A DNA stretch of 64,000 nucleotides from Gordius sp. MW1 (taxonomy: Eukaryota > Nematomorpha > Gordioida > Gordea > Gordiidae), in contig OZ038526.1 of NCBI GenBank assembly GCA_964036665.1, forward strand, positions 6,572,001 to 6,636,000, read 5' to 3'. The position numbers and the translations under genes are program-made. Below, one piece after another: positions 6,601-64,000 of the stretch. How positions within the stretch are numbered: position 1 is the first letter of the stretch; each line of letters begins with the position of its first letter. The notes under the pieces were generated by a model that was not told the DNA's origin, ran no database searches, and saw only the letters and a list, made by a program, of their open reading frames with translations.

Positions 6601-9600
6601 AAGGGATTAATAAAAGGTACAAAGCTATACATGTTAAATTTAAAATATTATAGATTTCCCGATCTATATAGTTTGGATAATTTGGTTGCAACGATCCTCC
6701 ATCCAATTTTTAAAACAAGTTGGCCGTGGATCCGTCTCGAAAAATGTAAGAGATAAGGAAAACACCTTAAATTACATTAATTCATTGATCCCTAACCAGG
6801 AGGAAAGACAGGACCTAGAGGAACCAAATACGTTGGATTTTTTTATTCTTTTAAAATTCACACATTTATAAATTCGAATAATAGTGATTTGTTAATATAT
6901 AATAATATCCCTAAATTGAAATCTAGCGCCCCCGTCGAGCGTCTTTTTAGTCTTGGTAAATTAATTTTCAGTTAAAAGCGAACTAGCTTATTAGATGACA
7001 ATATAGAAAATAACGTATTATTGAAATCGAATCATCATTTATTACCTTCTGATATTATATAAATGTTTAAATAAATAATATCAAAAAATATTATTTTTTG
7101 TAACTTTAGGTGTAACTAAATCCATCAGGTAAGTGATTGGAACTGTAATCAGTTACATTTGAAAATTTGTAACTGTAACTGTAATTAGTTACATTTTTTG
7201 TGAAAGTAACTATAACTTAACCAGTTACTGTGGTAAAGTAACTTTAACAGCCTGCATATTTCATAATAAAATTACATAGTATAAATACGTTTAAATATAA
7301 GGACGTTTCCTATATAGAACAATTTTATTTAAGCTTCTTTAATATTCTTGGGCAGTCTATAATTAGCAAGTTAACTTTATCAGCATTTGTTGTTCGGGAA
7401 TTGAGACCAGCTAATTTTAATAGACGTAAAATTTTCAGCTTTAGACTCATGTTTGTGATTCATTGAAAATAAATATATCTTTTTATGTGGCAGGCGGCCA
7501 TATACGGGCCAGGCTTGAACATACATTAACAAAATAAAGGCTTCGGGCAGGACTGGACCATTTTTGTTCAAAATTGTTAAATTTTATTTTTCAACATATG
7601 TATAAATAAATAAGCTAGTAGATCTTTAAAAAATGATTAATTTATAATAACAAGTTTGATTAAAAAAATAGTTGATTTAAATGTAGCAAGATCAATTGAA
7701 TTTTTAATTTTTTGCACATCCTATTTATCCGTGTATTAAAATTAGCTATTAATAACAATCCAATTTATTATTTAAGGTAAAATAAATATGAAATGTAAAA
7801 TTTGAATATTGAATTTCAAAAAAGATGTCGGGTCGGTCTTGAGATAAAATTAAAAAGGAGTTTGGACTCAGGTCGAGCTTGAATAAATTAATAATATAAA
7901 CATCGGGCCGGGCAACACAAAAATTAGAGTAATATTTTGCTTGTTATAATTAATCTAAAAATTTAAACTTGGTGCTCACCCTGCTCCTTATCAATAGCCT
8001 CATTTATATCCTCCCACCTTTCTTCAAAATCCATCGTGGCAAAATTAATCCCATACCCCTCCGATAAAACATTCGTCAAGGCCCTATCACACTGGAACCT
8101 TAATGTTATTCCAGAAACCTCCTATTCACATACATCAATTCAAATGGATTGGGATGCTTGTTTGGTTTCGCGCTCCGTTGCTCACCTACTTACGAGCAGC
8201 GATACCAAACAACATTACAACCTTCGGTCATTGGTGTTTGATAAATCTGGCCACGAATGGCTTGACGCTTACCCCAGTAAGTATTCAACATGATGTTGGA
8301 GGATTCCGAACTAACTTACAGTATAGCTCTACGCCTTGGTATCAAATACACCAAACCATATGCCTGTAGGAATTGCGACCTGCCAGTTGACGAAGAAGCC
8401 CTTCATCCATTACATTGCAGGTTGAACAAATACAGACACGTGCGGCATTTAAAAATCAACTCCATCATCCAGTCGGCCCTGAAATAGGCTAAAATTCCCT
8501 CCATTCTTGAGCCGTCAGACCCTTCTCTTGAGGGTCGAATACGCCCTGACGGCTCCTCACTTGTGCCTTGGTAACACGGTCTATTTCTAAAATGGAACTT
8601 TACAGGCATTGATCTATTTGCTTTTTCAAAATTATGACCCAATGGTTCTCGCCAAGGGGCGCAAATAAATACAAGGCTCTTTTAAACTCAAGTATTTTTA
8701 TCCCCATAGTTTCATCCTGTTCCGGCTGGGAAAATGGCATTGTCCTTTTTTAAAGAAATAGGCAGACGATCTCCTCCTTCAAAATATTCTCCCGCATTTC
8801 TACTATAACAATCAATTGCGATTTTAATCGCAAAATTCAACTTTAAATCCTTTTTGGATCCTTGTCGTTCTTTAAAAGAGGAAGATGAAGATATATTAGC
8901 TACTTACTCTCTTTTATAATTATTTTTAATATACTAAATTTGTATTACATTTTATCGTATTTTAATTAGCAATATATTAATAAACTTTTTTTATATTAAA
9001 AAAAAAATTAAATAACGCTTGATAACTCGAAGTGATTTAACATGTATCAGGCTATTAGCGATTTGTTCATGACTGGATCTGAAGCTTCTTTCCTCTGTAA
9101 AAAATATATATGGTGCCCGGTCATGAATTATAAATTTAAAGGTCATGTTGCGTGTTTAAAATATTTGAAAATAATCTACCCCAAAAAGGGGGGGTATTCA
9201 CCTAGCAAAATGCTAAAACTAACCGACCCTTCTATTAATAATTATCTATCTATTGATGTCGGAAAATATATTTACATCATTACATGAAAGGCTAATATAA
9301 TCAATAACCAATTAATTCTTTAAAATGCTAAATTCTTAGCATGTATATGCATGCACAAACCCAAGTCATGGTCAAAACATTTGATGCTAAAACCTGGATC
9401 ATAGCCATAAAAAAACTTATTTTTTAAACGCTGTTGATTTTCTCATATTTTTCATTTAGATTTAGTATATACTTTAGAATAACACATTTATCACATCTGG
9501 GATAAATGTACAAACTAAACAAAAACATTTTTGCAAGCTATACTTTTATACTATATATTTGTAATAAGTTTATCAAATTAAATCATAATTTAAAAATTGT

Positions 9601-43800: not shown

Positions 43801-46800
43801 AAACAACTTTTATTTATGTTTATTATATAACATTGGTCAGCAGCCAGCGGACGGCCAAAAAGTCATAATAGCAATGGTAGGAACAGGAACAATCATAATA
43901 GTCAAAAAAAACGAAAAAAATAATTTCGATTCACATTTTGGCCAATGGTCATTTTTTCCATCGGTCAGGAGCCAGCGGACGGCCAAAAATTCTTATGATT
44001 GTAACAAGAACAATCATAAGAGTCAAAAAAAACTCCGGGATTCTAACTAAAAAACTAGTTAAATTGCATAGCAATTAAAAGTAAACAACTTTTATTTATG
44101 TTTATTTTATAATAGCTAATTTAACAAATCTTATATATAACACACCGAGGGAGATAGAGATGAGGGGTGGGGCACCTCTTATGCATTAAATTAAAAAATA
44201 ACACAGCGAGGGAGATAGAGATGAGGGGTGGGGCACCTCTTTCTTATGCATTAATTTAAAAAATTGATAACCTAATATACCCAATGCAAATAGATAGGTG
44301 GACGGACGGACACCAAAAAACGAGCCCATAAATTGCATAGCAATTAAAACGAGCCCATAAATTGCATAGAAATTAAAAGGAACTTACTATTGTCTTGGTG
44401 GTGCGCGATTTGATTGAGAAGACAAAATATTCCTGAAGCATATGTACAGTCTATGAAAATTATTTATGAAGTCACCTCAATTTCTTGCGTTAAGAAGAGC
44501 CGGAGAGAAATATTTTGGGGTTAGAAGTAGATTAAATCAAGAATGCTCTAAGCCCCTTATTATTTAAAATAATTATGGACATGATAACAGAGGACACACA
44601 AACCCGTTTCCTTGATGTATGTTTTATGCCGATATGCCAGCAGACTAAAAGAAAGTACTCGAAAATGCCAAAATATCATCAAAACGGTTAGCCGGATATG
44701 GTCTAAATCGAAAAACGATATCGACGAAGGTGAACTTCACATTTTTTAATTTAGCCGCTTTTTATAGACGAAATTACGAGGCTTACTTCAGAGGAGATGG
44801 AGGATTTGGGAAATAATTTCACTCCAGAAATAAGCCTGAATACCATGTTTAACAAATGAAGTTATCGTATCCGGAGATACGAAGATGAAGATATCTTCCC
44901 ACACCCCCCCCCCCCATCTCATCTCATTCAAAAGTTGAAGTTAAGAGTTCAACACGCGGTACAATTCTCTTGATCTTACACATTGTACACTCATAGCGTA
45001 GACCATTATTCTTTTACATTTAATTCCTAGTACGCGTATGTTACCCCCCCCCGACGCGCTTATACGTTTGTGTTATTTATTTCTCCCCATATATGATTGT
45101 TTATCAACATGAATACGTATGAGTGATTTGTAGTAAGGAGATTGATACACAATATAATTTTTTTTGTAATAAAATAGATTGGCGAAATGTAGAGAGGTAG
45201 AGTTATCTTTATTTAGTGGCATTAAGCCCGACCATCCCACAACAATATTTCCCCCTGAATTATTAGGAATTAATTGGGGGAATTTAAAAGAAGGATAGGG
45301 GGAAATATTGTTGTGGGATGGTCGGGCTTAATGCCACTAAATAAAGATAACTCTACCTCTCTACATTTCGCCAATCTATTTTATTACAAGAAAAATTATA
45401 TTGTGTATCAATCTCCTTACTACAAATCACTCATACGTATTCATGTTGATAAACAATCATATATGGGGAGAAATAAATAACACAAACGTATAAGCGCGTC
45501 GGGGGGGGGGGGGGTAACATACGCGTACTAGGAATTAAATATAAAAGAATAATGGTCTACGCTATGAGTGTACAATGTGTAAGATCAAAAGAATTGTACC
45601 GCGTGTTGAACTCTTAACTTCAACTTTTGAATATGATGAGATGGGGGGGGGGGGGGGGGGTGGGAAGATATCTTCATCAAATTATTCGGATAAAATTATT
45701 CCAGGAACATCCCGTGTGCCATGAACAACCGTCACAGCGCAGGGATATTGGATAAAATTATTCCAGTAAAACAATCGAACCACTTCGTCGGGATTAAAAA
45801 GCAATCGAACCACGTACTAGAACAATCGAACCAATCCATGATTCGGAAATATTGGGAGACGGAGGAAGAAAACAATTCCTTCGAACAATTGGCTACCAAA
45901 TTTAAACCGCAAACATAATTCAGTGGAAATTCCAATATGTCTGAGAACGATGGCGGAATTCTTCGAACAAATGAAAATCCCGAAACTGATTTAAATCAAA
46001 ATATCAATTATGCAGAATCATCCCCAACTAATTCTCAAGGCCTAAATTCTTAATGTGCCGCTAAAATATTATTGTAAGACAGAATATACACTTGATTTAT
46101 TTACATATATTAATTATATGACGATTATATTGTTAACCAATATTTAAACCCCCCCCCCCCCCGCAGTTTCTTTGACTATTATTTGACAGTCTGCGCGTGG
46201 GCAAGAAAGGATAATTTCAAGATGGCAGTTTACACTCTATATTAATTATAAGTTTTGTCAAGGCTGTTGCTAGGTGAGTCACAGAGCTGGAAGAAAAATC
46301 CGTTAGCCATGACGTTGCCTTTTTATCACTGATTTTTACATATATCAGTCGTCGTGTGAGCAAAGGCCAGGGTTGGTATTCGATGCCAGATGTTTGAGAC
46401 TTATATTAATAACGCCGCCTTGATAGTTGCACTCAACAACACAGGACTCTATCAAAAATACATTAAGTCTTCGACTTTTAAAAGGGAAAGGTATCGTATC
46501 CGGAGATACGAAGATGAAGATATCTTCCCACACCCCCCCCCCCCCCCCCCCCCCCATCTCATCTTATTCAAAAGTTGAAGTTAAGAGTTCAACACGCGGT
46601 ACAATTCTTTTGATCTTACACATTGTACACTCATAGCGTAGACCATTATTCTTTTACATTTAATTCCTAGTACGCGTATGTTACCCCCCCCTGACGCGCT
46701 TATACGTTTGTGTTATTTATTTCTCCCCATATATGATTGTTTATCAACATGAATACGTATGAGTGATTTGTAGTAAGGAGATTGATACACAATATAATTT

Positions 46801-48112
46801 TTCTTGTAATAAAATAGATTGGCGAGATGTAGAGAGGTAGAGTTATCTTTATTTAGTGGCATTAAGCCCGACCATCCCACAACAATATTTCCCCCTATCC
46901 TTCCTTTAAATTCCCCCAATTAATTCCTAATAATTCTTCCTTCAAATATTTGTAAATCATATTCCTTTTCCCAGGAATGCGATAGAAGTTTTAATTATAA
47001 GAATGGCTACTAACCACTCTAGAAAGGCAATTAATAATGACTTACATATAAAGCTGGTTTAAATCATCAAACAGGATATTAGTTGGGTTGCTTAGATAAA
47101 CAATTTTTTAAGTAAAAGCATAAGCAATTTTTTGAGGAAATTGTTATCAGATCATTAAGGCCCTGAGTGGCCACCCCCCTCCCCACAATACATTTGACCA
47201 ATACAAACAAATCAAACAAATTTATGTACATAATCTTTCATCGCCGTATAAACTATGAAGGGATATTTCTAATGATGCTCTGTCATTTATACATGTTATA
47301 AATTCTATAAATAGGTTATTAAGATTGGGTCAGTGTGACTCAATAATGAAAATAAAACCTAAAACATATTTTTATCTGTGATAATTAATGATGTGAATTC
47401 AATCATGCATTTATTTAAATCCCATTTTAGACTGTGTATAAAACATACCATTTGATCCACTTGCATGGTTATTTCCATAGAGGTTGATCCAACCCATGTG
47501 GTCATGCCAGAAAACTTTATATTTAAATTTGGAGAAGGTGAATAATTAGTCAAATCTATAAAAATTCAAAAAGTAACAATATCATTATCCAAAACTATAT
47601 TAAATTAAAAATTAAAAGAAAACTAAAAATATTTAATACTTTTAATTTACCTATTTTGTCAACTAAAGCAGTAACCATATTAAAAGGTACACGCCCAGGT
47701 TCTATATTTGGTCTCTGATTATGTTTGTACCCAATCCATACTAAATTAATCATTTGAAATATAAAAACTTTGAATAAAAATCATATGTTACCAGCAAAAG
47801 CATCCAAATCTTCAAGTATTCTTCCAAATCGTACCTTCTTGTCAGAGAGTATATAATAATCCCTTAAAGTCACATCTTCCGCCAAAGGGACAATTGCTGT
47901 GCTGAAACTATCTTTCATTGATCTGATAGGTAAGTCACTCTGAGACTTTGGGTTAAGAAATTGTATGTTTTCTGTGTATGATTTAGGTGGGTCCAAACTA
48001 AAAAAAATTGCATTGTATAAATTTTGATGAATAAGTCAAGGAAAATCTATTGAGTCATTTCATTACCTCCATGATCTTTGAGGTTGTACCCAGTCAATGA
48101 TTTTTTCTCTAA
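34870..48112 (-). CDS. ACOT9: Acyl-CoA thioesterase 9-type (ACOT9) gene, eight recognised exons
   Basis: ACOT9 is a mitochondrial double-hotdog thioesterase that hydrolyses acyl-CoAs to free acid and CoA. Exons in transcript order: 48067-48112, 47792-47997, 47651-47740, 47449-47555, 38006-38371, 36708-36881, 35675-35858, 34870-34919. All phases agree, and the total is 1223 nt (about 407 residues; ACOT9 is about 440). Landmarks in order are REKIIDWVQPQRSW, RSMKDSF, KVRFGRILEDLDAF, FNMVTALVDKI, IKFSGMTTWVGSTSMEITMQ, MVARDRSNSSKG, VWMEDTLLKTVLICHPQ, NNTIFGGFLMRQGYELGWVT, KVIRVDDIVFKRPVKIGS, VKVHSEV and EAMLYIMGQRHFL, then stop. The first exon, with start codon and mitochondrial targeting peptide, was not found and should lie above 48112. 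A 9077-bp intron (38372-47448) holds most of the gene's transposons. Confidence 0.92.
36146..36276. mobile_element. MITE (GTTGTAAAAA family), right end lost
   Basis: The left end is gttgtacaaacgggtgcgtt, with internal gtcgacctttgg and gtcgactaaggaaaaacaga motifs as in the copy at 1997. The right inverted end is missing, probably displaced by the neighbouring element at 36290. It lies in an ACOT9 intron. Confidence 0.5.
36290..36590. mobile_element. ~300-bp MITE with TGCAAAATGTAATATAGGC ends
   Basis: The left part (tgtgcaaaatgtaatatagg) is an inverted match to the right part (cctatattacaatttgcacc). Direct AAAAAGGCAC repeats lie outside both ends, probably the target duplication. Inside are a perfect GCGCATGCGC palindrome, flanked by ttat and ataa, and an agggttagggttagatttag stretch. 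That stretch is shared with the composite elements at 15517 and 41042, which therefore contain a piece of this family. Confidence 0.6.
36933..37095. mobile_element. MITE, GGGCGTAGCCAGG family
   Basis: The inverted ends are catgggcgtaaccgggtttg and ccccctggctacgcccctg. The core carries gggggcaataaggattgagg and ggggggcagccgccactccc. It lies in an ACOT9 intron, about 50 bp from the 36708-36881 exon. Confidence 0.65.
37800..37923. mobile_element. MITE, GGGCGTAGCCAGG family
   Basis: The inverted ends are aatgggcgtagccagcagtg and cccctggctaggcccatg, with the gggcaataatgatttaggga core. It is a shorter copy of the family, in the intron next to the 38006-38371 ACOT9 exon. Confidence 0.65.
38372..39156 (-). 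other. Start of the 9-kb ACOT9 intron
   Basis: Unremarkable AT-rich intronic DNA; no exon or repeat was recognised. Confidence 0.4.
39157..39291. mobile_element. MITE, GGGCGTAGCCAGG family (best-preserved ends)
   Basis: The ends catgggcgtagccagg and gctggctacgcccatg are inverted matches, and both sides are flanked by AATG. The core (ccctaaatcattattgcca) is in the opposite orientation to the copy at 37800. It is non-coding. Confidence 0.7.
39690..41041 (+). pseudogene. RTE-like LINE relic, 5' part (endonuclease and start of reverse transcriptase)
   Basis: Broken frames reconstruct an apurinic-type endonuclease: HVGKDRHERNHEDYEHG, then a SHAYDMAIV segment, then FSQIDYLCLYGERI, then ARQHRPLV. 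A connecting region is open at 40402-40620, followed by the first reverse transcriptase block (GKANGLDGTS..., then SANQFGFMEGKPKKGAVFTI and MKNEHDKR). Many stops and shifts show it is dead. The frame is cut at about 41042 by the composite element and resumes at 44377. The RTE assignment is from motif memory. Confidence 0.65.
41042..44376. mobile_element. Tandem pair of the composite minisatellite element, nested in a LINE
   Basis: Two ~1.65-kb units (about 41042-42744 and 42745-44376) match the element at 15517-17675. Each has a CTCGGGCCTTCGGCCCTCG hairpin, a purine-rich G-run tract, an aagggttagatttagtg-like stretch, CCAAT/ATTGG minisatellites, GAGGGAGATAGAGATGAGG blocks and (GGAC)n. The right end is a duplicated cgagcccataaattgcatag. 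The far-left inverted end seen at 15517 is missing, so the insertion is 5'-truncated or rearranged. It interrupts the LINE reverse transcriptase, losing some codons at the junction. It has no coding capacity. Confidence 0.7.
44377..44800 (+). pseudogene. RTE-like LINE relic, 3' part (reverse transcriptase)
   Basis: Continuation of the relic at 39690-41041. Frames read WWCAI, then RRQNIPEAYVQSMKIIYEVT, then traces of the region before the catalytic box, where YADMPAD sits at the place of the FADD motif. IIKTVSRIWSKSKNDIDEG follows. Internal stops are frequent. The catalytic Asp pair is not intact. Confidence 0.6.
44863..45678. repeat. Near-perfect palindrome with ~0.38-kb arms
   Basis: The left arm (44884-45256) and right arm (45297-45678) are inverted copies with a 40-bp spacer. 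Each arm contains gatgaagatatcttcccac, a long C or G tract, gttcaacacgcggtacaatt, a second C/G tract beside gacgcgcttatacg, and attaagcccgaccatcccac. Arms differ at scattered bases and in homopolymer length. The spacer is the terminal part of the same ~0.43-kb unit, present only on the right-arm side, so the palindrome is two units in inverted orientation. Open frames in it (68 codons at 45274-45480) are probably incidental. Confidence 0.85.
45721..46053 (+). pseudogene. Coding-like ORF remnant with one internal stop, unidentified
   Basis: One frame runs 45721-45918 (65 codons) to a TAA, then stays open to a TAA at 46051-46053, with an ATG at 45937. The first part contains a repeated QSNH motif and IRKYWETEEENNSFEQLATK; the second reads MSENDGGILRTNENPETDLN. 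Acidic, Asn/Gln-rich composition suggests real but decayed coding sequence, perhaps a transposon accessory or gag-like protein. The family is not recognised. It lies between the palindrome and the third arm copy. Confidence 0.35.
46492..46936. repeat. Third copy of the palindrome-arm unit
   Basis: It has the same orientation as the left arm at 44863, starting tatcgtatccggagatacga and ending aattaattcctaataattc. The first C tract is longer here (about 27 C at 46530-46556). A 68-codon minus-strand frame (46713-46919) mirrors the one in the palindrome because the DNA is a copy. Confidence 0.8.
46937..47448 (-). other. End of the 9-kb ACOT9 intron
   Basis: AT-rich intronic DNA; nothing recognised. 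Confidence 0.4.
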
Positions 48113-50136: not shown

Positions 50137-52451
50137 ATGTTCTTAATCCTATATAATGCTGCTTTTAATGTTGTTTTTATCGACGCTGAGAGTATTAAAT
50201 TATTCAACGAAAACCTGCAAAAGAGAATTGAGTCAACACCACAACCAATTAACATGACCATCGAAGAACAAAGCGCTTGGATAACAGAAAGCCTAATTAC
50301 ATCATCGCTTAACTTAAAACCCACCCCCCCCCCCATCACAACAAATCACTCTCCTTTGAATCCCTTCGCCTTATGAACGAGAGGAGCGCAATAACCAGAT
50401 CATCAGCCAAATTTAAGAAAGAACGTCTTAAAGCAATCAACAAGCTTATAAAGGCCAGTGTGCAACGCGATAAGAGGATATACGCGGCTGATATAGTAAA
50501 AGAAGCCGAAGTTGCGAGTAAAACGAACAATACCCACAAACTTTATAAGAAACTTAAAGGCTTAACTAAAGGCTTGAACCTAAGTTACAACGAGCATCCA
50601 ATTGCAACCTCCAACCCCAAAGATTCCATAGTTCAACTGAAATCATGGGAAAACACTTCCGCGACATCCTTTCCTTCCCCACCCCATTCCCATATACAGA
50701 TATTTATGCAGGTTTCATCAAGGACTTCAAAGGCCCTGGCGAGGCCAACATAGATTATCAACCCCCTAGCGGTACGAAATCATGCAAACCACAAGCTACC
50801 GACAAAGAAGGAATCTCAGCCGAACTCTACAACCTCTTCCCAGCTCCTACATACAACCATTATTCGAAAGGATATGGACGAACGAACAATTGCCCGAATC
50901 ATGGTCTAGCAGTGTTCTGATAAAGATCTTCAAAAAAGGCAACCACCTTGACCCCAATAACTAGAGAGGTATAGCATTAATAAATGTCACCTCAAAAATT
51001 TTCATAAACATACTCTACCACCGAGTGAAATCGTACATGGACAATAAAATAAATCACACACAAGCAGGCTTCAGCAGCTCGCGCACAACACCCGAGCATA
51101 TCTTAACCATCAAAAACTTGATCGACGAATCAAACTCAAAAAGCCCCCTGTACATACTCTTCCTTGACATCTCCAAGAACCCTTTGTCTACTGGGACTAC
51201 AAAAAAAAATCATAAGACTTATTTTCATGCTATATGAAAACCAAAAACTCTTTGTCAGACATTACCAGCTGCTCTCAAACCCCATCACTCCAAACTCAGG
51301 TGTTAGGCAGGGGTGCCCCTTATCCCCTATGATCTTCATCTCGGATTTGAACCTAATACTGAAGAGATCCATATTCCCAAGCGATGGCTTGCTGTTGAGT
51401 AACAGCACGAGGATCTCGTCTCATTTGTTTGCCGATGATATCTGCTTAATCTCCGACTCGTTGACCAACCTACAAAACATGCATGATAAATATGCTCAAG
51501 AAGCAGCCCGGGGGATTCAGTTGCAATTGACCAAAGAGCAAATAAATGTCTACGAAAATGCATTTGTCGATTAAAATGTGTGCCTCTATTCCTAACCCAA
51601 ACCTAAAACACTAACCCTAACGTTTTGGTCTCTGTAAACCCCTCTCAAGGGGCATTTTCGTTAAATATTTATAGACATTCATAGATATTTGGTCAGTTAA
51701 ACTTTGGTTGAATGCACCGATACGAGCCTGAGGAGGCCTGATCATCAACGCAGAAAAATCCACACTACTTGCCCTTAACCCGCAACCCAATGCGAGTATC
51801 ATGAGCCATAATTCTATTATTAAACCCTCGGACAAAGCTAAATACGTTGGTGTGTCTCTGTGCGCGGACAAGCACACCACGCTGGATGTCTCAGAAAAAA
51901 AAACAAAGGCTACCAACAAGGTCAAACAATGCAACAGAATTTGGAACTGCAAAATGTTCTCAAGAAACACCAAACTTCGCCTATACAAAACCTTAATTCT
52001 CCCAGTACTCTTTTACGGCTGCGAGACCTGGAACCTCAAGACAAGCTCAATCAAAAGCATACAAACAAAGGCGAACAAAATGTTGAGAATTGTCTGTCAA
52101 ATCTTCTACCCAAGAATAATTAGGAATGAGAATATATGGTTTCTATGCAAACTTCCCCCGCTCAAATACATGATTTTGGCTAAAAAGTGGAACTTCTTAG
52201 CGCACCAGTTTCGGAGAGGCTCCCCCAACCTCTGCATGTCTACTTTACTATGGAGACCCCCCCCCCCCTTCAATAAGGATACCGGAAATGCCGTGGAACT
52301 ACAACACGTCGAGAGATTTAAACGGCATAGTACTTGTTGTAGTCTTACTACACGAGTATTGCCTTCCTTCCACCCTTATCTATCTTCACGATTAATTACG
52401 CAGCAAAACCAGCTGCGCTGTGAAGGAGAGCACGGGGCATTGATTCTGTGA
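50137..52451 (+). pseudogene. LINE reverse transcriptase relic
   Basis: Overlapping plus-strand frames give successive blocks of a non-LTR retrotransposon polymerase. These are a linker with KFKKERLKAINKLIKASVQR and KLYKKLKGLTKG, then RGIALINVTSKIF, QAGFSSSRTTPEHILTIKN, YILFLDIS, and the SGVRQGCPLSPMIF block. HLFADDIC, which carries the catalytic Asp pair, and LILPVLFYGCETW follow. Frameshifts occur at about 50640, 50960 and 51190. A 200-bp MITE separates the catalytic box from the thumb region. The endonuclease is not seen. The clade is not assigned. Confidence 0.8.
51513..51714. mobile_element. ~200-bp MITE inserted in the LINE reverse transcriptase
   Basis: The left end (gattcagttgcaattgacca, then aataaatgtctacgaaaatg) is an imperfect inverted match to the right end (cattttcg..atttatagacattcatagat, then atttggtcagttaa). 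Protein homology to reverse transcriptase stops at the left boundary and resumes soon after the right one (GLIINAEKSTLLAL). The interior has acactaaccctaacg, a telomere-like run. Confidence 0.6.
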
Positions 52452-52902
52452 ACTCTCACACGCACACAACCCCCCCCCCCATCATCTTTCTCTTATTTAT
52501 TAGCGTCTGTATACGCATCTAAGGTATACGCATTTTAATGTATACACATCGCGCTTGCATACGCGTAGTCCCTCTCCCCCCATTGCTATCTACGCGATAT
52601 ATTATAGTGAGATTTTAACACGATTTATTTGTCGACGCTTAGTAACGCTTATCTCGATTATTATTTTATGTTAGAGTTGTGCTCATAGTTTTAAATGTTT
52701 TTCTACTAATCTTTTGTCACATTTCACTATTTTTATTCACCTTTGGGTTATTTTTTACATTATATAATATCTGTTACAACTAAATAATTAAAAACCGTAA
52801 AACATCAAAAATTTTATAATATAAAAAAGACGCGTGCTCTGTTAAAGGTTTACGTATCTAAATGTTTGACGTGAAAATAATAATCAAAGCGCGCATCAAA
52901 TT
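52452..52902. other. Stretch between LINE and Helitron palindrome
   Basis: A few GTATACGCA-type direct repeats occur at 52506-52570. Nothing else was recognised. Confidence 0.4.
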
Positions 52903-53310
52903 GTTTTTAGAGCTTCACTGCCAACTTTTTAGAGCTTTATTGAAAACAAAATTTTTTACTAACAGGTAATAACAATTTAAATTCATAATTCAATTTTTAT
53001 AATTGTTTTTAGAGCTTTATTGACAACAATCCTTATCAATTCTTATAACTGGAATTTTTATCCCTGTGATTTTACTAACAGGTAATAACAATTTAAATTC
53101 ATAATTAAATTTTTATAATTGTTTTTAGAGCTTCACTGCCAACTTTTTAGAGCTTTATTGACAACAATCCTTATCAATTCTTATAACTGGAATTTTTATC
53201 CCTGTGATTTTACTAACAGGTAATAACAATTTAAATTCATAATTAAATTTTTATAATTGTTTTTAGAGCTTCACTGCCAACTTTTTAGAGCTTTATTGAC
53301 AACAATCCTT
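52903..53310. repeat. ~136-bp tandem repeat, about three copies (left arm)
   Basis: Units contain agagcttcactgccaacttt, aacaatccttatcaattctt, gtgattttactaacaggtaa and taacaatttaaattcataat. Copies of the last motif begin near 52965, 53083 and 53219; the first unit is shortened. Confidence 0.8.
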
Positions 53311-53438
53311 ATCCATTCTCAAAATCCACCCGAAGTTGGATTAGCAGGTTATAGATATATCATTATAAATCTTATTTTTGCCCACAGACCTGTATACATT
53401 TTTAAATTTCTTTTTCTTTGTATATCGACTTTAGATTC

Positions 53439-56400
53439 ATGCGCCCCAAGAAAACATCTATTGGACGTAAAACACGAAATACGGATCGAGTGCGCCGATT
53501 GCGTGCTCTTGAGCTTGAAAATGAACTACAGCAGTCTGCAACTCTGCCTCAGCCACCTTCACGTGCTCAGCCATTACCCGCAGGCAACCGCCTAGCATTT
53601 TCTTACCCATCTAATATTGAAAGTTTACGTCGCCATGTTCTCATTGGTACTATGTCTATTGTGTGTCCTCACTGCAATGCCTTGAAATTTGCTGGAGAAA
53701 CGACTGGAATGTGTTGCGCAGCCGGAAAAGTTAAACTGCCTCACCTTGCAGAACCGCCTGAGCCATTAAAAACATTGCTGGCTGGTTATACCACTGATTC
53801 TAAACATTTTCTATCTAACATCAGGAAATACAACTCCTGTTTCCAAATGACGTCGTTTGGCGCTGATGTTGTAACCACACAATTCATGCCTACATTCAAG
53901 GTAAAAGATCAAATTTATCATAAAGCCGGTTCCCTCCTTCCATTGCCAGAAGGGCAACATAAGTTCCTACAACTATATTTTATCGGAGATGATGAGATAG
54001 GATTAGGTGCACGCCTCGACATTTTTAGCGGTTTAAAAAGATCCATCGTTTCACAGCTTTGCTGCTTCATGCTAATAATAATTTAGTGCGTTTATTCAAA
54101 ACTGCACTGGACATAATGCCTTCAGATACCCATAAAATAGTCATTCATGCTGACAAAACTCCTCCGGGAGAACATGGGAGAAGATTTAATGCCCCAACTA
54201 TACATGAAGTCGCCATTGTTATAGTTGGGGATCAATTTCAACCTAGAGACATTGTGCTTCATAGGAGAAACAATGCTTTGACACAAGTTTCTGATACTCA
54301 TCGCTGCTATGGCCCCTTACAATATCCAATTATATTTTGGGATGGTGCTGACGGATATCACTGTAACGTTAAGATGATAAATCCAATCAATGGCGAACCT
54401 ACAAACTCAAAATGCAGCGCTATGAACTATTATTCATACATAATAATGATTCGAGCGGACGGGGACAATTTATTTTAAAATGCCGGCAATTATTCCACCA
54501 ATACATCGTGGATATGTATGCCAAAATTGAATCGGAGCGTTTGCTATACATCCGCTTAAATCAGACTAAACTTCGCTCAGAAGAATATATCCATTTGCGA
54601 GATGCTCTTCGTAACGACTCTAATACCATTAACGTTGGGAGATCAACCATTTTGCCTTCATCTTATACAGGAAGTCCACGCCATATGCATGAATACGCTC
54701 AAGATTCAATTGCGTATGTTCGTAAATACGGTCGTCCGGACCTATTTATAACTTTTACATGCAACCCAGCGTGGGACGACATAAAAGACCTTTTGTTTCC
54801 TGGTCAATTACCTCTCGATAGGCATGACATTACCGCCCGTGTTTTCCGGCAAAAACTTAAATCAATGATTAATCTCATTGTTAAGCATGAGGTATTTGGG
54901 TCTGTGCGTTGCTGGATGTATTCAGTCGAATGGCAAAAGAGAGGTTTGCCTCATGCCCATATACTCATATGGCTATATAGCAAGATTACGTCAAACCAAA
55001 TCGACGCTTTAATATCTGCTGAAATTCCCGACCCCAACTTAGATAACGATTTGTACCAAATTGTTACGAAAAATATGATACACGGCCCTTGCGGAACACT
55101 TAATCCAAGATCGCCATGCATGATAGACGGCAAATGCTCAAAGCGATATCCTCGAAGCTTAGTATGCAATACAATTACCGGCAACGATGGATACCCTTTG
55201 TACAAAAGAAGATCAATAGCAGATGGTGGTAACGTAGCAACCATCCCCATACGCAATGCAACGGTCGAGGTGGACAACCGATGGGTTGTTCCATATAGTC
55301 CTCTGCTCTTAAATTTATACAAAGCTCACATCAACGTTGAGTATTGTAACTCCGTTAAATCTATCAAATATATTTGTAAATATGTAAACAAAGGCAGTGA
55401 TTTGGCAGTTTTCACTGTTCAACCAGATAGCATAGCCCAATTAGGGAGCCTTCACACCGATGAAATCGCACAGTATCAGGCTGGAAAATACATTAGCAGT
55501 AATGAAGCTGTGTGGCGTATTCTATCTTTCCCCATACATGACCGTAGTCCTGCTGTGGTTCACTTAGCCGTGCATCTAGAAAATGGGCAGCGAGTTTATT
55601 TTACAAATGCTAATATCCAACAAATCGCCTTAAACCCCCCCGACACAACGCTCACAGCTTTCTTCAAGCTATGCCAACATGATGTTTTTGCGCAGACGCT
55701 GCTCTATTCAGAGGTACCTACCTACTACACATGGAATTCGCGTAGCAGATCGTTTTGCCGTCGCAAACGTGGAAAGCATGTCGATGGACGCCCTGACATA
55801 TTCGAAGATGATGCGATAGGCCGACTATACACTATCCATCCCAATCAAGATGAATGTTTCTTTCTTCGCATGCTTTTAATTAATGTACGTGGTCCTACAT
55901 GTTTCCAAGAATTAAAAGTGGTCGACGGTGTTGTACATCCCACTTTCCGCAGTGCATGCCAAGCTATGCATCTATTAGAACACGATAATCATTGGGATGA
56001 ATGCATCAGTGAAGCCTGTCATACTACAAATCCAAAACAAATCCGTGCATTATTTGCGATTATATTGACTTCATGCTCTCCGTCAAATCCTAAATCTTTA
56101 TGGGATAAATATAAAGCACACATGGCAGAAGATATTATTCATCGGAATAGTACTTCACATCCTATCATTAACATGCCTCAAATGTCACATTATAATCAAA
56201 CTTTAATTATTCTTGAAGATTTATGCTTACAAATCGGGAATAAGGTTTTAATACAATTGGGGATGCCTGCGCCTAATCGCTCTTCTGCCGCTCCATTACA
56301 TGCCGAATTCTACCGTGAACTTAATTATAACCAAGAAGATCTTTTGTTTTATGTGCGCTCTAATATTCCAAGGCTAACACTCCAACAAAAAGCCATTTAT

Positions 56401-56550
56401 GATACAATATTATTAGCTGTTAATAAAGGCTCTGGAGATATATTTTTCTTAGATACTCCTGGCGGAACTGGTAAAACATTTTTACTGACTTTACTTCTTG
56501 CAACTGTTCGATCCCAAAATGAAAATGGATATAGCCTGGATTTTAATTAG
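53439..56550 (+). pseudogene. Helitron Rep gene, left arm, truncated in the helicase domain
   Basis: Helitrons transpose through a rolling-circle RepHel protein. The ATG at 53439 starts MRPKKTSIGRKTRNTDRVRR. A zinc-finger-like segment follows (CPHCNALKF...MCCAAGKVKL), then ADGDN and FHQYIVDMYAKIESERLLY, then RPDLFITFTCNPAWDDI. The HUH motif is in GLPHAHILIWL, the catalytic-Tyr region in YICKYVNKGSD, and the start of a Pif1-type helicase in LTLQQKAIYD and DTPGGTGKTFLLTLLL. The protein stops about 20 residues after Walker A, so helicase motifs II-VI are missing. A small deletion near 54050 and a shift near 54475 break the frame into three pieces. Confidence 0.88.
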
Positions 56551-57779
56551 AGTGGGGAAACAGTAATTTACCGAGGCCGAATAATTACTTTTAAAATTAA
56601 AGATTTAAGGAAGGAAAAAATGATAATTTTTAGTATTAAATTTGAAAGAATTTTTGAATTAGATGGAGGCCGCCCGCCCCTCCCTTCCACCTCTTGCCTA
56701 CCTCCCTGTTGTTTCATGCTTGGTATTAACTGCAATTATAAATAAGATATTAATTAACTCATGAGGGATGGTAAGCACTTCGTTAAAAAAGATTTTAAAG
56801 CAACACTACTCTTTATATTTATTTTGAAAACAACAGCCTAATAAAAACCATTCACAATTTTCATATAAAAAATTACAAGGTTAATTTGAAATAACGTGGG
56901 TTAACATTTTTCTAAACATTTTTTTAACATCTATTTTTAAATTACCTTGTAAAACATCTCCGGTTTTTCCTGATCCCAGATGCTTGACACATCGAATAAT
57001 AGATTTTGAGTCTAACATGAATAAATTGCTAATCAATTTCTAGGTATTTTTAAGTTGAATTAAAAAAATTATTTTCATTTTATATGTTTTGATTTTATAA
57101 ATTTATTATAAAATATATTAAAATATTTAAATCTTTATGTTGTACCAGGTAGGGAACCACTAGATCGTGTTCTTTCTTCTTTCGCTGGGGTTGCCAATGA
57201 TATCTATCAATATTATTTTTATATAAGCACAATGCTGAATCTGAAATACTTTTAAAAATTAATTAATATATATGCTCTTAGAAGATTTTACCCTCATAAT
57301 TAATGTTCTTCATATCTATATTTTCGGGAATTATCGAAAATATATCTATGAAGAATATTTGCTTTTATTTTAAATATTCTTTTGTAATTTTATAAACAAG
57401 CTAAAATTAGTGCAATTAAAAACATTAATATGGACAAATACTTTGGTATTTGTTTGTTTGCTTTTTCTGGGGATGCAACAAAAAAAGTTACCCATATCTA
57501 GAAAAATATTAATTTAATTTATAATATAAAAGAAAGGTAATACTAATTTTTATATAAAAAATATATAACAATAGATTTTTAGTTGTGATTTTTAATATCT
57601 ATTTATCTATATATATAAAAATCTTATTTAATATAAATTACTTGATTTTTTCTCTGGCAACTTTTTTAAATTTGAGAAAGCAATCTAACCACTAAGAATG
57701 ATAAAATGTCAATTAATTACTAATTAATAATACAACTATCATACATTAAAGCTCTAATCAGCAAATTAATGTCATTGTT
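56551..57779. other. 3' flank of the truncated Helitron, left arm
   Basis: A GC-tract segment (56545-56715, with ggaggccgcccgcccctccc) resembles the GGGCGTAGCCAGG MITE family and begins where the helicase reading frame ends. The rest is AT-rich. The whole stretch recurs in inverted form at 58568-59796. Confidence 0.5.
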
Positions 57780-57904
57780 GGTTATGACGTTCATTGAATG
57801 TTTACCTCGCATATGATTTTTATAGTTTCATTTAATAAAAAAAGCCTATTATAAAAAAAAAATTAAACGAAATTGTACTAATAAAAAATGAGAACAAATT
57901 ATTG

Positions 57905-58095
57905 TGCTCAGTATTTAATTCAATTTTTGCTCAGTAGAATAATCAATTGCTCAGTAGAATAATTAAATGATCAGTAAAATATTAAAATGCTCAGTAAATA
58001 ATTTAATGTTCAGTAATTTAATTATTTGCTCAGTAATTAATTCATTTGTTCAGTTATTATTTCTATGTTATTCAGTAAATTTTTGCTCAGTAACT
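57905..58095. repeat. Interspersed TGCTCAGTA repeats
   Basis: About ten copies of (T)GCTCAGTA or close variants (gatcagta, gttcagta) occur at roughly 20-bp intervals within AT-rich sequence. Such short, spaced, same-orientation motifs resemble transposase-binding subterminal repeats. Confidence 0.6.
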
Positions 58096-58190
58096 GAAAT
58101 TTAATTTTAAAATAAAATTAATATTTAGGCGAGATTTGAACCAGCAATGTCAATTCGTAGATGTCCTGTGTGTTATCTATGTGGTAAAAA

Positions 58191-58280
58191 GACATGGGTT
58201 TTGTTTAGTCGACTAAAAGTTCGACTAAGAAAAAGGACAGAATTCATTTTTGTCTGTTTTGGTGACATTCGTCAAAATTA
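58191..58280. mobile_element. Fragment of the GTTGTAAAAA MITE family
   Basis: gggttttgtttagtcgacta is followed by gttcgactaagaaaaaggac and ttgtctgttttggtgac, the internal arrangement of the element at 1997. The ends are incomplete. Confidence 0.4.
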
Positions 58281-58349
58281 TTGTTTACAGAGCTAATTAA
58301 ATTCTTTAAATGAAAATTGGTGAGCTAGATATCAGAGGTCAGATTTGTT

Positions 58350-58490
58350 AAAATTTTTCTGCCCGAACCCGGCCCGGCCCGATTTTATAATTAATCTGCC
58401 CGCCCGAGCCCGCCCGAACCCTTCCATGTGTCCGCCCGGCAATGCCCGAATTATCAGAGCTGCCCGAACTGCCCGGCCCGAAATCGTGTG
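58350..58490. repeat. CCCGGCCCGAACCC-type repeat cluster
   Basis: Clustered gcccgaacccggcccggccc and cgcccgagcccgcccgaacc motifs, as at 2935-3060. This may be the end of a decayed DNA transposon. Confidence 0.45.
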
Positions 58491-59796
58491 TTTTAAAATT
58501 ATTAGCACTAATATCGTTGTATTTTTTAAAAATTTTATCTTAATTTTTGATTTTTTTTAAAATGAGAAACAATGACATTAATTTCCTGATTAGAGCTTTA
58601 ATGTATGATAGTTGTATTATTAATTAGTAATTAATTGACATTTTATCATTCTTAGTGGTTAGATTGCTTTCTCAAATTTAAAAAAGTTGCCAGAGAAAAA
58701 ATCAAGTAATTTATATTAAATAAGATTTTTATATATATAGATAAATAGATATTAAAAATCACAACTAAAAATCTATTGTTATATATTTTTTATATAAAAA
58801 TTAGTATTACCTTTCTTTTATATTATAAATTAAATTAATATTTTTCTAGATATGGGTAACTTTTTTTGTTGCATCCCCAGAAAAAGCAAACAAACAAATA
58901 CCAAAGTATTTGTCCATATTAATGTTTTTAATTGCACTAATTTTAGCTTGTTTATAAAATTACAAAAGAATATTTAAAATAAAAGCAAATATTCTTCATA
59001 GATATATTTTCGATAATTCCCGAAAATATAGATATGAAGAACATTAATTATGAGGGTAAAATCTTCTAAGAGCATATATATTAATTAATTTTTAAAAGTA
59101 TTTCAGATTCAGCATTGTGCTTATATAAAAATAATATTGATAGATATCATTGGCAACCCCAGCGAAAGAAGAAAGAACACGATCTAGTGGTTCCCTACCT
59201 GGTACAACATAAAGATTTAAATATTTTAATATATTTTATAATAAATTTATAAAATCAAAACATATAAAATGAAAATAATTTTTTTAATTCAACTTAAAAA
59301 TACCTAGAAATTGATTAGCAATTTATTCATGTTAGACTCAAAATCTATTATTCGATGTGTCAAGCATCTGGGATCAGGAAAAACCGGAGATGTTTTACAA
59401 GGTAATTTAAAAATAGATGTTAAAAAAATGTTTAGAAAAATGTTAACCCACGTTATTTCAAATTAACCTTGTAATTTTTTATATGAAAATTGTGAATGGT
59501 TTTTATTAGGCTGTTGTTTTCAAAATAAATATAAAGAGTAGTGTTGCTTTAAAATCTTTTTTAACGAAGTGCTTACCATCCCTCATGAGTTAATTAATAT
59601 CTTATTTATAATTGCAGTTAATACCAAGCATGAAACAACAGGGAGGTAGGCAAGAGGTGGAAGGGAGGGGCGGGCGGCCTCCATCTAATTCAAAAATTCT
59701 TTCAAATTTAATACTAAAAATTATCATTTTTTCCTTCCTTAAATCTTTAATTTTAAAAGTAATTATTCGGCCTCGGTAAATTACTGTTTCCCCACT

Positions 59797-62700
59797 CTAA
59801 TTAAAATCCAGGCTATATCCATTTTCATTTTGGGATCGAACAGTTGCAAGAAGTAAAGTCAGTAAAAATGTTTTACCAGTTCTGCCAGGAGCATCTAAGA
59901 AAAATATATCTCCAGAGCCTTTATTAACAGCTAATAATATTGTATCATAAATGGCTTTTTGTTGGAGTGTTAGCCTTGGAATATTAGAGCGCACATAAAA
60001 CAAAAGATCTTCTTGGTTATAATTAAGTTCACGGTAGAATTCGGCATGTAATGGAGCGGCAGAAGAGCGATTAGGCGCAGGCATCCCCAATTGTATTAAA
60101 AGTTTATTCCCGATTTGTAAGCATAAATCTTCAAGAATAATTAAAGTTTGATTCTAATGTGACATTTGAGGCATGTTAATGATAGGATGTGAAGTACTAT
60201 TCCGATGAATAATATCTTCTGCCATGTGTGCTTTATATTTATCCCATAAAGATTTAGGATTTGACGGAGAGCATGAAGTCAATATAATCGCAAATAATTC
60301 ACGGATTTGTTTTGGATTTGTAGTATGACAGGCTTCACTGATGCATTCATCCCAATGATTATCGTGTTCTAATAGATGCATAGCTTGGCATGCACTGCGG
60401 AAAGTGGGATGTACAACACCGTCGACCACTTTTAATTCTTGGAAACATGTAGGACCACGTACATTAATTAAAAGCATGCGAAGAAAGAAACATTCATCTT
60501 GATTGGGATGGATAGTGTATAGTCGGCCTATCGCATCATCTTCGAATATGTCAGGGCGTCCATCGACATGCTTTCCACGTTTGCGACGGCAAAACGATCT
60601 GCTACGCGAATTCCATGTGTAGTAGGTAGGTACCTCTGAATAGAGCAGCGTCTGCGCAAAAACATCATGTTGGCATAGCTTGAAGAAAGCTGTGAGCGTT
60701 GTGTCGAGGGGGTTTAAGGCGATATGTTGGATATTAGCATTTGTAAAATAAACTCGCTGCCCATTTTCTAGATGCACGGCTAAGTGAACCACAGCAGGAC
60801 TACGGTCATGTATGGGGAAAGATAGAATACGCCACACAGCTTCATTACTGCTAATGTATTTTCCAGCCTGATACTGTGCGATTTCATCGGTGTGAAGGCT
60901 CCCTAATTGGGCTATGCTATCTGGTTGAACAGTGAAAACTGCCAAATCACTGCCTTTGTTTACATATTTACAAATATATTTGATAGATTTAACGGAGTTA
61001 CAATACTCAACGTTGATGTGAGCTTTGTATAAATTTAAGAGCAGAGGACTATATGGAACAACCCATCGGTTGTCCACCTCGACCGTTGCATTGCGTATGG
61101 GGATGGTTGCTACGTTACCACCATCTGCTATTGATCTTCTTTTGTACAAAGGGTATCCATCGTTGCCGGTAATTGTATTGCATACTAGGCTTCGAGGATA
61201 TCGCTTTGAGCATTTGCCGTCTATCATGCATGGCGATCTTGGATTAAGTGTTCCGCAAGGGCCGTGTATCATATTTTTCGTAACAATTTGGTACAAATCG
61301 TTATCTAAGTTGGGGTCGGGAATTTCAGCAGATATTAAAGCGTCGATTTGGTTTGACCTAATCTTGCTATATAGCCATATGAGTATATGGGCATGAGGCA
61401 AACCTCTCTTTTGCCATTCGACTGAATACATCCAGCAACGCACAGACCCAAATACCTCATGCTTAACAATGAGATTAATCATTGATTTAAGTTTTTGCCG
61501 GAAAACACGGGCGGTAATGTCATGCCTATCGAGAGGTAATTGACCAGGAAACAAAAGGTCTTTTATGTCGTCCCACGCTGGGTTGTATGTAAAAGTCATA
61601 AATAGGTCCGGACGACCGTATTTACGAACATACGCAATTGAATCTTGAGCGTATTCATGCATATGGCGTGGACTTCCTGTATAAGATGAAGGCAAAATGG
61701 TTAATCTCCTAACGTTAATGGTATTAGAGTCGTTACGAAGAGCATCTCGCAAATGGATATATTCTTCTGAGCGAAGTTTAGTCTGATTTAAGCGGATGTA
61801 TAGCAAACGCTCCGATTCAATTTGGCATACATATCCACGATGTATTGGTGGAATAATTGCCGGCATTTTAAAATAAAATTGTCCCCGTCCGCTCGAATCA
61901 TTATTCTGTATGAATAATAGTTCATAGCGCTGCATTTTGAGTTTGTAGGTTCGCCATTGATTGGATTTATCATCTTAACGTTAAAGTGATATCCGTCAGC
62001 ACCATCCCAAAATATAATTGGATATTGTAAGGGGTCATAGCAGCGATGAGTATCAGAAACTTGTGTCAAAGCATTGTTTCTCCTATGAAGCACAATGTCT
62101 CTAGGTTGAAATTGATCCCCAACTATAACAATGGCGACTTCATGTATAGTTGGGGCATTAAATCTTCTCCCATGTCCCGGAGGAGTTTTGTCAGCATGAA
62201 TGACTATTTTATGGGTATCTGAAGGCATTATGTCCAGTGCAGTTTTGAATAAACGCACTAAATTATTATTAGCATGAAGCGGCAACTGAAGCTGTGAAAC
62301 GATGGATCTTTTTAAACCGGTAAAAATGTCGAGGCGTGCACCTAATTCTATCTCATCATCTCCGATAAAATATAGTTGTAGGAACTAATGTTGCCTTTCT
62401 GGCAATGGAAGGAGGGAGCCGGCTTTATGATAAATTTGACCTTTCACCTTGAATGTAGGCATGAATTGTGTGGTTACAACATCAGCGCCAAACGACGTCA
62501 TTTGGAAACAGGAGTTGTATTTCCTGATGTTAGATAGAAAATGTTTAGAATCAGTGGTATAACCAGCCAGCAATGTTTTTAATGGCTCAGGCGGTTCTGC
62601 AAGGTGAGGCAGTTTAACTTTTCCGGCTGCGCAACACATTAAAGTCGTTTCTCCAGCAAATTTCAAGGCATTGCAATGAGGACACACAATAGACATAGTA

Positions 62701-62909
62701 CCAATGAGAACATGGCGACGTAAACTTTCAATATTAGATGGGTTAGAAAATGCTAGGCGGTTGCCTGCGGGTAATGGCTGAGCACGTGAAGGTGGCTGAG
62801 GCAGAGTTGCAGACTGCTGTAGTTCATTTTCAAGCTCAAGAGCACGCAATCGGCGCACTCGATCCGTATTTCGTGTTTTACGTCCAATAGATGTTTTCTT
62901 GGGGCGCAT
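59797..62909 (-). pseudogene. Helitron Rep gene, right arm, truncated in the helicase domain
   Basis: This is the second copy of the Helitron gene, read on the minus strand from an ATG at 62907-62909. It retains the zinc-finger-like start, the HUH motif (GLPHAHILIWL), the YICKYVNKGSD region and the truncated helicase start. Its lesions differ from those of the left arm. A Lys codon is a stop at about 62386. A frameshift follows VDMYAK near 61820. A stop lies just after NMPQMSH near 60155, and Walker A reads DAPGRTGKT with Arg in place of a conserved Gly. The left-arm deletion near 54050 is absent here. The copy is non-functional. Confidence 0.88.
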
Positions 62910-63039
62910 GAATCTAAAGTCGATATACAAAGAAAAAGAAATTTAAAAATGTATACAGGTCTGTGGGCAAAAATAAGATTTATAATGATATATCTATAAC
63001 CTGCTAATCCAACTTCAGGTGGATTTTGAGAATGGATAA

Positions 63040-64000
63040 GGATTGTTGTCAATAAAGCTCAAGTTGGCAGTGAAGCTCTAAAAACAATTATAAAAATTTA
63101 ATTATGAATTTAAATTGTTATTACCTGTTAGTAAAATCACAGGGATAAAAATTAAAGTTATAAGAATTGATAAGGATTGTTGTCAGTAAAGCTTTAAAAA
63201 CAATTATAAAAATTTAATTATGAATTTAGATTGTTATTACCTGTTAGTAAAATCACAGGGATAAAAATTCAAGTTATAAGAATTGATAAGGATTGTTGTC
63301 AATAAAGCTCTAAAAAGTTGGCAGTAAAGCTCTAAAAACAATTATAAAAATTTAATTATGAATTTAAATTGTTATTACCTGTTAGTAAAAACACAGGGAT
63401 AAAAATTCAAGTTATAAGAATTGATAAGGATTGTTGTCAATAAAGCTCTAAAAAGTTGGCAGTGAAGCTCTAAAAACAATTATAAAAATTTAATTATGAA
63501 TTTAAATTGTTATTACCTGTTAGTAAAATCACAGGGATAAAAATTCAAGTTATAAGAATTGATAAGGATTGTTGTCAATAAAGCTCTAAAAAGTTGGCAG
63601 TGAAGCTCTAAAAACAATTATAAAAATTTAATTATGAATTTAAATTGTTATTACCTGTTAGTAAAATCACAGGGATAAAAATTAAAGTTATAAGAATTGA
63701 TAAGGATTGTTGTCAGTAAAGCTCTAAAAAGTTGGCAGTGAAGCTCTAAAAACAATTATAAAAATTTAATTATGAATTTAAATTGTTATTACCTGTTAGT
63801 AAAATCACAGGGATAAAAATTCATAAGAATTGATAAGGATTGTTGTCAATAAAGCTCTAAAAAGTTGGCAGTGAAGCTCTAAAAACAATTATAAAAATTT
63901 AATTATGAATTTAAATTGTTATTACCTGTTAGTAAAATCACAGGGATAAAAATTCCAGTTATAAGAATTGATAAGGATTGTTGTCAATAAAGCTCTAAAA
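63040..64000. repeat. ~136-bp tandem repeat, seven or more copies (right arm)
   Basis: Inverted counterpart of 52903-53310, with motifs such as atgaatttaaattgttatta, aaaatcacagggataaaaat and aggattgttgtcaataaagc recurring every ~114-147 bp. It continues beyond the window. The copy number is more than twice that of the left arm. Confidence 0.85.

What the first reader, a model, noticed from the sequence alone, without database searches (positions are those of the whole stretch)
52903..64000. Giant (>11 kb) inverted repeat with a Helitron Rep gene in each arm
Two arms of about 4.9 and at least 5.4 kb are reverse complements around a 788-bp spacer. The duplicated piece includes a Helitron gene already cut off after Walker A, its flanks and a tandem array, so truncation came before the inverted duplication. 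Helitrons normally insert as single copies, and an inverted pair sharing host-side flanks suggests a segmental inverted duplication or template switch. Such a palindrome could extrude a cruciform and be a local instability hotspot.
Basis: partly seen in the sequence, partly recalled or inferred. Interest (0 to 1): 0.72.

Follow-up and report, generated by a model that had tools for sequence, protein, structure and literature searches.

The report
Old inverted duplication of truncated Helitron
A mirror-image repeat of about 11.6 kb is real: a broken copy of a jumping gene, fused to a piece of DNA from a kinase gene cluster, was copied backwards long ago, leaving a structure shaped like a known plant transposon silencer, although silencing was not tested here.

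Summary
The inverted repeat is real and slightly larger than reported: left arm 52729-57779 (5,051 bp), spacer 57780-58567 (788 bp), right arm 58568 to window-equivalent 64301 (5,734 bp, 301 bp beyond the window). Each arm is the 5' part of a dispersed Helitron cut at 56524, joined to a 1.26 kb segment X (56525-57779). The 138-bp array and 5' flank are not host flanks but the Helitron's own 5' region. X plus spacer is collinear (about 96%) with an inverted-duplicated kinase-gene cluster 18.8 Mb away on the same chromosome, so the left arm has the source order and the right arm is the inverted copy. Both new junctions show 0-1 bp of microhomology. The arms are sisters among eight Helitron copies compared (7 shared-derived sites; private sites 10 and 18), so an artefact is unlikely and the event is old. 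The innermost 1.3 kb is identical, suggesting arm-to-arm gene conversion. Best reading: template-switch inverted duplication. Most novel reading not excluded: a natural hairpin-RNA silencer of the Helitron family, like maize Mu killer.

The parts
52335..52645 (+). Fragment of a dispersed repeat, also present in direct orientation at window-equivalent 64652-64967; left flank, not part of the mirror
   Evidence: 97% direct match; dispersed copies
52644..53405 (+). Helitron 5' region of the left arm with 2.3 copies of the 138-bp unit; cut at 52644 (other copies continue further 5'). The mirrored part starts at 52729
53406..56524 (+). Left-arm Helitron Rep-Hel coding part (Rep plus start of PIF1 helicase), cut at 56524; frame open from 54373 on, broken upstream
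   Evidence: ORFs; Pfam PF14214, PF05970; family copies
56525..57779 (+). Segment X, left arm: matches DNA next to kinase exons at C8:25.42-25.46 Mb
   Evidence: 96-97% to four B-cluster copies including gaps; 9, 12, 14 and 14 substitutions, gap columns left out
57780..58567 (+). Unpaired spacer at the centre, collinear with the B cluster; holds a dispersed repeat at about 57890-58333
58568..59822 (-). Segment X, right arm (inverted copy), 1 substitution from the left arm
59823..62941 (-). Right-arm Helitron Rep-Hel coding part, same cut point; frame broken into pieces
62942..64000 (-). Right-arm Helitron 5' region with an expanded 138-bp array; continues to window-equivalent 64301, where another dispersed repeat starts

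Best explanation
A truncated Helitron copy was joined at 56524/56525 to a 2.04 kb piece (56525-58567) copied from, or sharing a source with, the kinase-gene cluster at C8:25.42-25.46 Mb. At 58567 the copying strand then switched back to its own product at 57779 and copied X and the Helitron outward in reverse, giving an inverted duplication with a 788-bp spacer (replication-based repair by template switching, MMBIR/FoSTeS type). Shown: the anatomy, the shared junction, left-is-source-order polarity, sister arms, near-blunt junctions. Inferred: the replication mechanism; that joining and fold-back were close in time; that later arm-to-arm gene conversion kept the innermost 1.3 kb identical.
For: In one search only the two window arms match across the Helitron/X junction; four X copies lie in the B cluster and the listed Helitron pieces stop at the junction. 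The spacer is collinear with B up to 58568, where B continues differently. Junction overlap 0-1 bp. Among eight Helitron copies (two arms, L021-L026) the arms share 7 derived sites, private sites are 10 left and 18 right, and none of the 13 two-state patterns conflicts with sister arms (columns with a gap or three states left out). Arms differ at 29 of 3,118 Helitron positions but 1 of 1,255 X positions (Fisher p = 8e-4); 56465-57761 has no difference. X of the arms differs from the four B copies by 9-15 substitutions, about the same level as the Helitron arm divergence, so joining and fold-back may be near in time.
Against: No relative genome or empty site was available, so the order of events rests on one genome. 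The fall in divergence toward the centre within the Helitron part is marginal: quarters 12, 7, 4, 6 for the arms against 34, 28, 36, 36 private sites in six other copies, p = 0.052. A lower substitution rate in X is not excluded, since X also differs little from B. B is rich in inverted duplications, so X could have arrived already rearranged. Arm-to-arm difference (29) is hardly below left arm to L022 (31).
Confidence: 0.72

Rival explanations
1. Natural hairpin-RNA silencer: read-through from the Helitron's own 5' region, facing inward from either end, yields a long self-complementary RNA that Dicer cuts into siRNAs against the Helitron family (a Mu killer analogue). This is a possible function and is compatible with the template-switch origin.
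For: Topology equals that described for Mu killer: partial transposase gene copies ending in an inverted duplication, both outer ends from the same element end (PMC3440606, passages). 63-84% of the 21-mers of six other family copies, over the 53407-56524 part, occur exactly in the arms. A family copy with an uninterrupted 1,441-codon Rep-PIF1 frame exists (L022). The genome has 22 Piwi-domain matches (21 over cut-off) in about five regions and two Dicer_dimer matches over cut-off.
Against: No RNA data and no promoter was identified. X, spacer and inverted X hold many AATAAA/ATTAAA hexamers on both strands (22 and 21 in 56525-60000), as AT-rich DNA would, which could stop read-through. PMC3440606 found short antisense transcripts, not the long hairpin, in silencing plants. 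The RdRP search did not complete.
Confidence: 0.12
2. Two independent Helitron insertions in opposite orientation.
For: The family is dispersed, with 45 listed matches, and arm-arm difference is close to that between left arm and L022 (29 versus 31 substitutions).
Against: Both arms share the junction to X seen only here among the rows, seven derived sites and the same cut.
Confidence: 0.05
3. Assembly or library artefact (hairpin read, misplaced haplotype).
For: Inverted arms are a classic artefact form (recalled); no reads could be inspected.
Against: Arms carry 10 and 18 private substitutions, different array copy numbers, different outer flanks and an unpaired spacer, with no N.
Confidence: 0.05
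4. A Helitron that captured X and moved as a palindromic unit by rolling-circle transposition.
For: Helitrons are known to capture gene fragments (recalled).
Against: The outer ends are not element ends: six matches in five other loci continue 5' of 52644 with a shared sequence; the right end stops 85 bp earlier, where another repeat begins; the helicase 3' half was not found in window plus 30 kb. No second copy of the unit is among the listed matches.
Confidence: 0.06

Closest known systems
Mu killer (Muk) of maize
   Same: Partial inverted duplication of a transposon's transposase gene, with both outer ends from the same element end (PMC3440606, passages)
   Different: Helitron rather than Mutator; about 5 kb arms with a 788-bp spacer and an added host segment; no expression or silencing data; host unnamed, with a TTAGGG-type telomere repeat at the two contig starts read, whereas most plants have TTTAGGG (recalled)
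Template-switch inverted duplications (MMBIR/FoSTeS; recalled)
   Same: Near-blunt junctions, a distant segment from the same chromosome, spacer at the fold-back centre
   Different: Mechanism inferred from sequence only; old and possibly homogenised in part
Large palindromes kept by arm-to-arm gene conversion (such as Y-chromosome palindromes; recalled)
   Same: Inner part more alike than outer part
   Different: Only a 1.3 kb identical inner stretch; Helitron parts of the arms differ by about 1%

Membership tests
Helitron (autonomous Rep-Hel element) | Helitron Rep domain plus PIF1-type helicase in one reading frame | tested here: met
   Family level only: L022 frame of 1,441 codons has Helitron_like_N (9.9e-57), PIF1 (9e-63) and Pif1_2B (6.4e-19). 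The arms have Rep plus only the start of PIF1: truncated members
Helitron (autonomous Rep-Hel element) | Both element ends present in the structure | tested here: not met
   Arms end inside the element 5' region and lack the 3' half in window plus 30 kb; the palindrome as a whole is not a Helitron
Helitron (autonomous Rep-Hel element) | 5' TC and 3' CTRR terminal letters, insertion between A and T (recalled) | not tested
   True element ends were not mapped for this family
Template-switch inverted duplication | One arm and spacer collinear with a source; inverted second arm; short microhomology at the switch | tested here: met
   0-1 bp overlap
Template-switch inverted duplication | Ancestral state without the duplication in a relative | not testable with these tools
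   No relatives held for this assembly (tool text)
Mu killer-type silencing locus | Tail-to-tail inverted duplication of a truncated transposase gene | tested here: met
Mu killer-type silencing locus | Transcripts and small RNAs that silence the active family | not testable with these tools
   No RNA data

The most novel reading that the evidence does not exclude
The locus is a natural, long-lived Helitron killer: an accidental inverted duplication, joined with a host kinase-cluster segment, that makes hairpin RNA silencing the Helitron family and perhaps the kinase cluster through X, and that is kept effective by arm-to-arm gene conversion at its centre.
Probability: 0.1. Interest if true: 0.78.

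Novelty: new member of a known kind. Interest (0 to 1): 0.36.

Why it matters
It is a sequence-resolved transposon inverted duplication whose likely source, junctions, polarity and relative age can all be read from one genome. If it is transcribed, it would be a Helitron counterpart of Mu killer and would let one ask whether chance palindromes help to end transposon bursts.

Tried and rejected
Host flanks duplicated with the Helitron: rejected, since array and flank belong to the Helitron 5' region. Direct repeats 52335-52645 / 64652-64967 as a target-site duplication: rejected, since they are pieces of a dispersed repeat; 26 of the 69 non-self rows start exactly at window-equivalent 64302, the base after the right arm's end, so the right edge is the edge of another repeat. 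The missing Helitron 5' sequence was sought in the 30 kb downstream and not found by exact probes or a word-7 blastn. X as part of the Helitron: rejected, since family copies continue with helicase after 56524. X-like fragments at C8:5.51-5.54 Mb and C3:21.83 Mb: a crude motif screen of ORFs of 70 codons or more showed no kinase exon. Organism: CCCTAA repeats at the starts of C8 and C1, another repeat at the far end of C8; no name found. A scan of the whole genome for other long inverted repeats could not be run; in the 277.5 kb held and scanned, long inverted pairs appear in this locus, in the kinase cluster, in repeats of the window and once in L031. Papers, listings only: Helitron with inverted duplication (12 of 14 listed), palindrome (8), hairpin RNA (11 of 12), head-to-head/tail-to-tail (5); no title or abstract opening shown there describes such a Helitron locus, and none of those papers was opened. 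Listings on inverted-duplication silencing; only passages of PMC3440606 were read.

Full report
OBSERVATION. The window is C8:6572001-6636000 of a 211.8 Mb, 12-contig assembly. The inverted repeat is real: pairs 54524-57779/58568-61823 with 788 nt between, and after adding 30 kb downstream one block 53006-57779 against 63316-58568 at 98.5% over 4,779 columns, with outer blocks to 52729 and 64301. The left arm is 5,051 bp and the right arm 5,734 bp, the surplus being mostly copies of the 138-bp unit. There is no N.

ANATOMY. Each arm, read inward, is Helitron 5' region, 138-bp array, Rep-Hel coding sequence cut at 56524, then X. Pfam finds Helitron_like_N and the start of PIF1 in both arms. The left arm has one open 725-codon frame (54373-56550) but is broken upstream; the right arm is broken into more pieces. 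The array and 5' flank belong to the Helitron: L021 and L022 carry both, and six matches in five other loci (L021, L022, L025, L026 twice, L027) hold the 5' region and continue beyond 52644 with a shared sequence. At the cut, L021, L022, L024 and L025 continue into helicase; L023 continues briefly and then has an insertion; the exact probe did not find the spot in L026 and L027. The genome search listed 45 matches to the Helitron part (40 of 682 candidates scored, a lower bound); in that list the window pair is the only opposite-strand pair within 100 kb. One family copy, L022, keeps a 1,441-codon frame with Rep and full PIF1 domains.

SEGMENT X. X and the spacer, 56525-58567, match four places in C8:25.42-25.46 Mb at about 96% with gaps counted, in alternating orientation. 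Two of the four span the whole piece, one reaches 58330, and one is split by about 2.2 kb. Kinase exons (PK_Tyr_Ser-Thr, 4e-18 and 7e-11 for the two peptides scanned) lie beside them. That cluster has several inverted duplications of its own: nine rows of 1.1 to 5.9 kb plus one 0.9 kb palindrome. In the 45 rows (40 of 285 candidates scored) only the two window arms match across the Helitron/X junction. The spacer also holds a dispersed repeat at about 57890-58333 (35 further rows at 85-95%).

HISTORY. At the centre the sequence follows the B cluster up to 58567 and then turns into the reverse complement of 57779 leftward, with 1 bp overlap; the Helitron/X joint has 0-1 bp. So the left arm plus spacer is in source order and the right arm is the inverted copy, if B shows the ancestral order. 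The arms were aligned with six other copies, those held of the many listed. Over columns without gaps and with two states, 7 sites are shared only by the arms, 10 and 18 are private to left and right, 6 are shared by L021 and L022 alone, and none of the 13 patterns conflicts with sister arms. The arms differ by 29 of 3,118 positions in the Helitron part but by 1 of 1,255 in X (Fisher p = 8e-4), and 56465-57761 is identical. Gene conversion of the inner part is the simplest reading. Against it, X may change more slowly: the arms differ from the B copies by only 9-15 substitutions, and the B copies differ from each other by 10-19. The gradient inside the Helitron part is marginal (12, 7, 4, 6 by quarter against 34, 28, 36, 36 in six other copies; p = 0.052).

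EDGES. On the left the Helitron is cut at 52644 against a fragment of a dispersed repeat, itself next to a reverse-transcriptase element. On the right the arm stops at 64301, where another dispersed repeat begins: 26 of 69 non-self rows start at 64302. The direct pieces flanking the structure belong to dispersed repeats and are not a target-site duplication.

FUNCTION. The origin looks like ordinary repair; the consequence may not be. The topology equals Mu killer, which silences MuDR in maize (PMC3440606, passages; in that paper silencing plants had short antisense transcripts and the long hairpin remained a proposal). Here 63-84% of 21-mers of six other family copies occur in the arms, an uninterrupted family copy exists, and the genome has 22 Piwi-domain matches (21 over cut-off) and two Dicer_dimer matches. 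The RdRP search did not complete. Against it: no RNA evidence, no promoter identified, and 22 and 21 polyadenylation-like hexamers on the two strands of 56525-60000. I give the silencer reading 0.10-0.12.

VERDICT. A true, old, inverted duplication of a Helitron/kinase-cluster chimera; a new example of a known kind, with one testable and more interesting possibility.

Noticed in passing
window 44884-45678: A second, nearly spacerless palindrome of about 800 bp (93%), with related pieces at 46534-46936.
   Followed up: partly
C8:25.42-25.46 Mb (L013-L017): Kinase-gene cluster with four alternating inverted copies; two inverted pairs are centred on a short microsatellite that reads as a Tyr-Ile-His-Thr repeat.
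   Followed up: partly
C5:18.49 Mb and C6:4.53-4.55 Mb (L021, L022): Closest Helitron relatives lie beside several direct, same-strand repeats of their own 5' region and array.
   Followed up: partly
window 57890-58333: Dispersed repeat of about 440 bp in the spacer, with 35 further listed matches at 85-95%.
   Followed up: no
L031 (C3:21.83 Mb) 7547-9557: X-like fragments in a diverged inverted pair (77%), a few kb from an ORF that looks like an OTU-type protease (recalled label).
   Followed up: no
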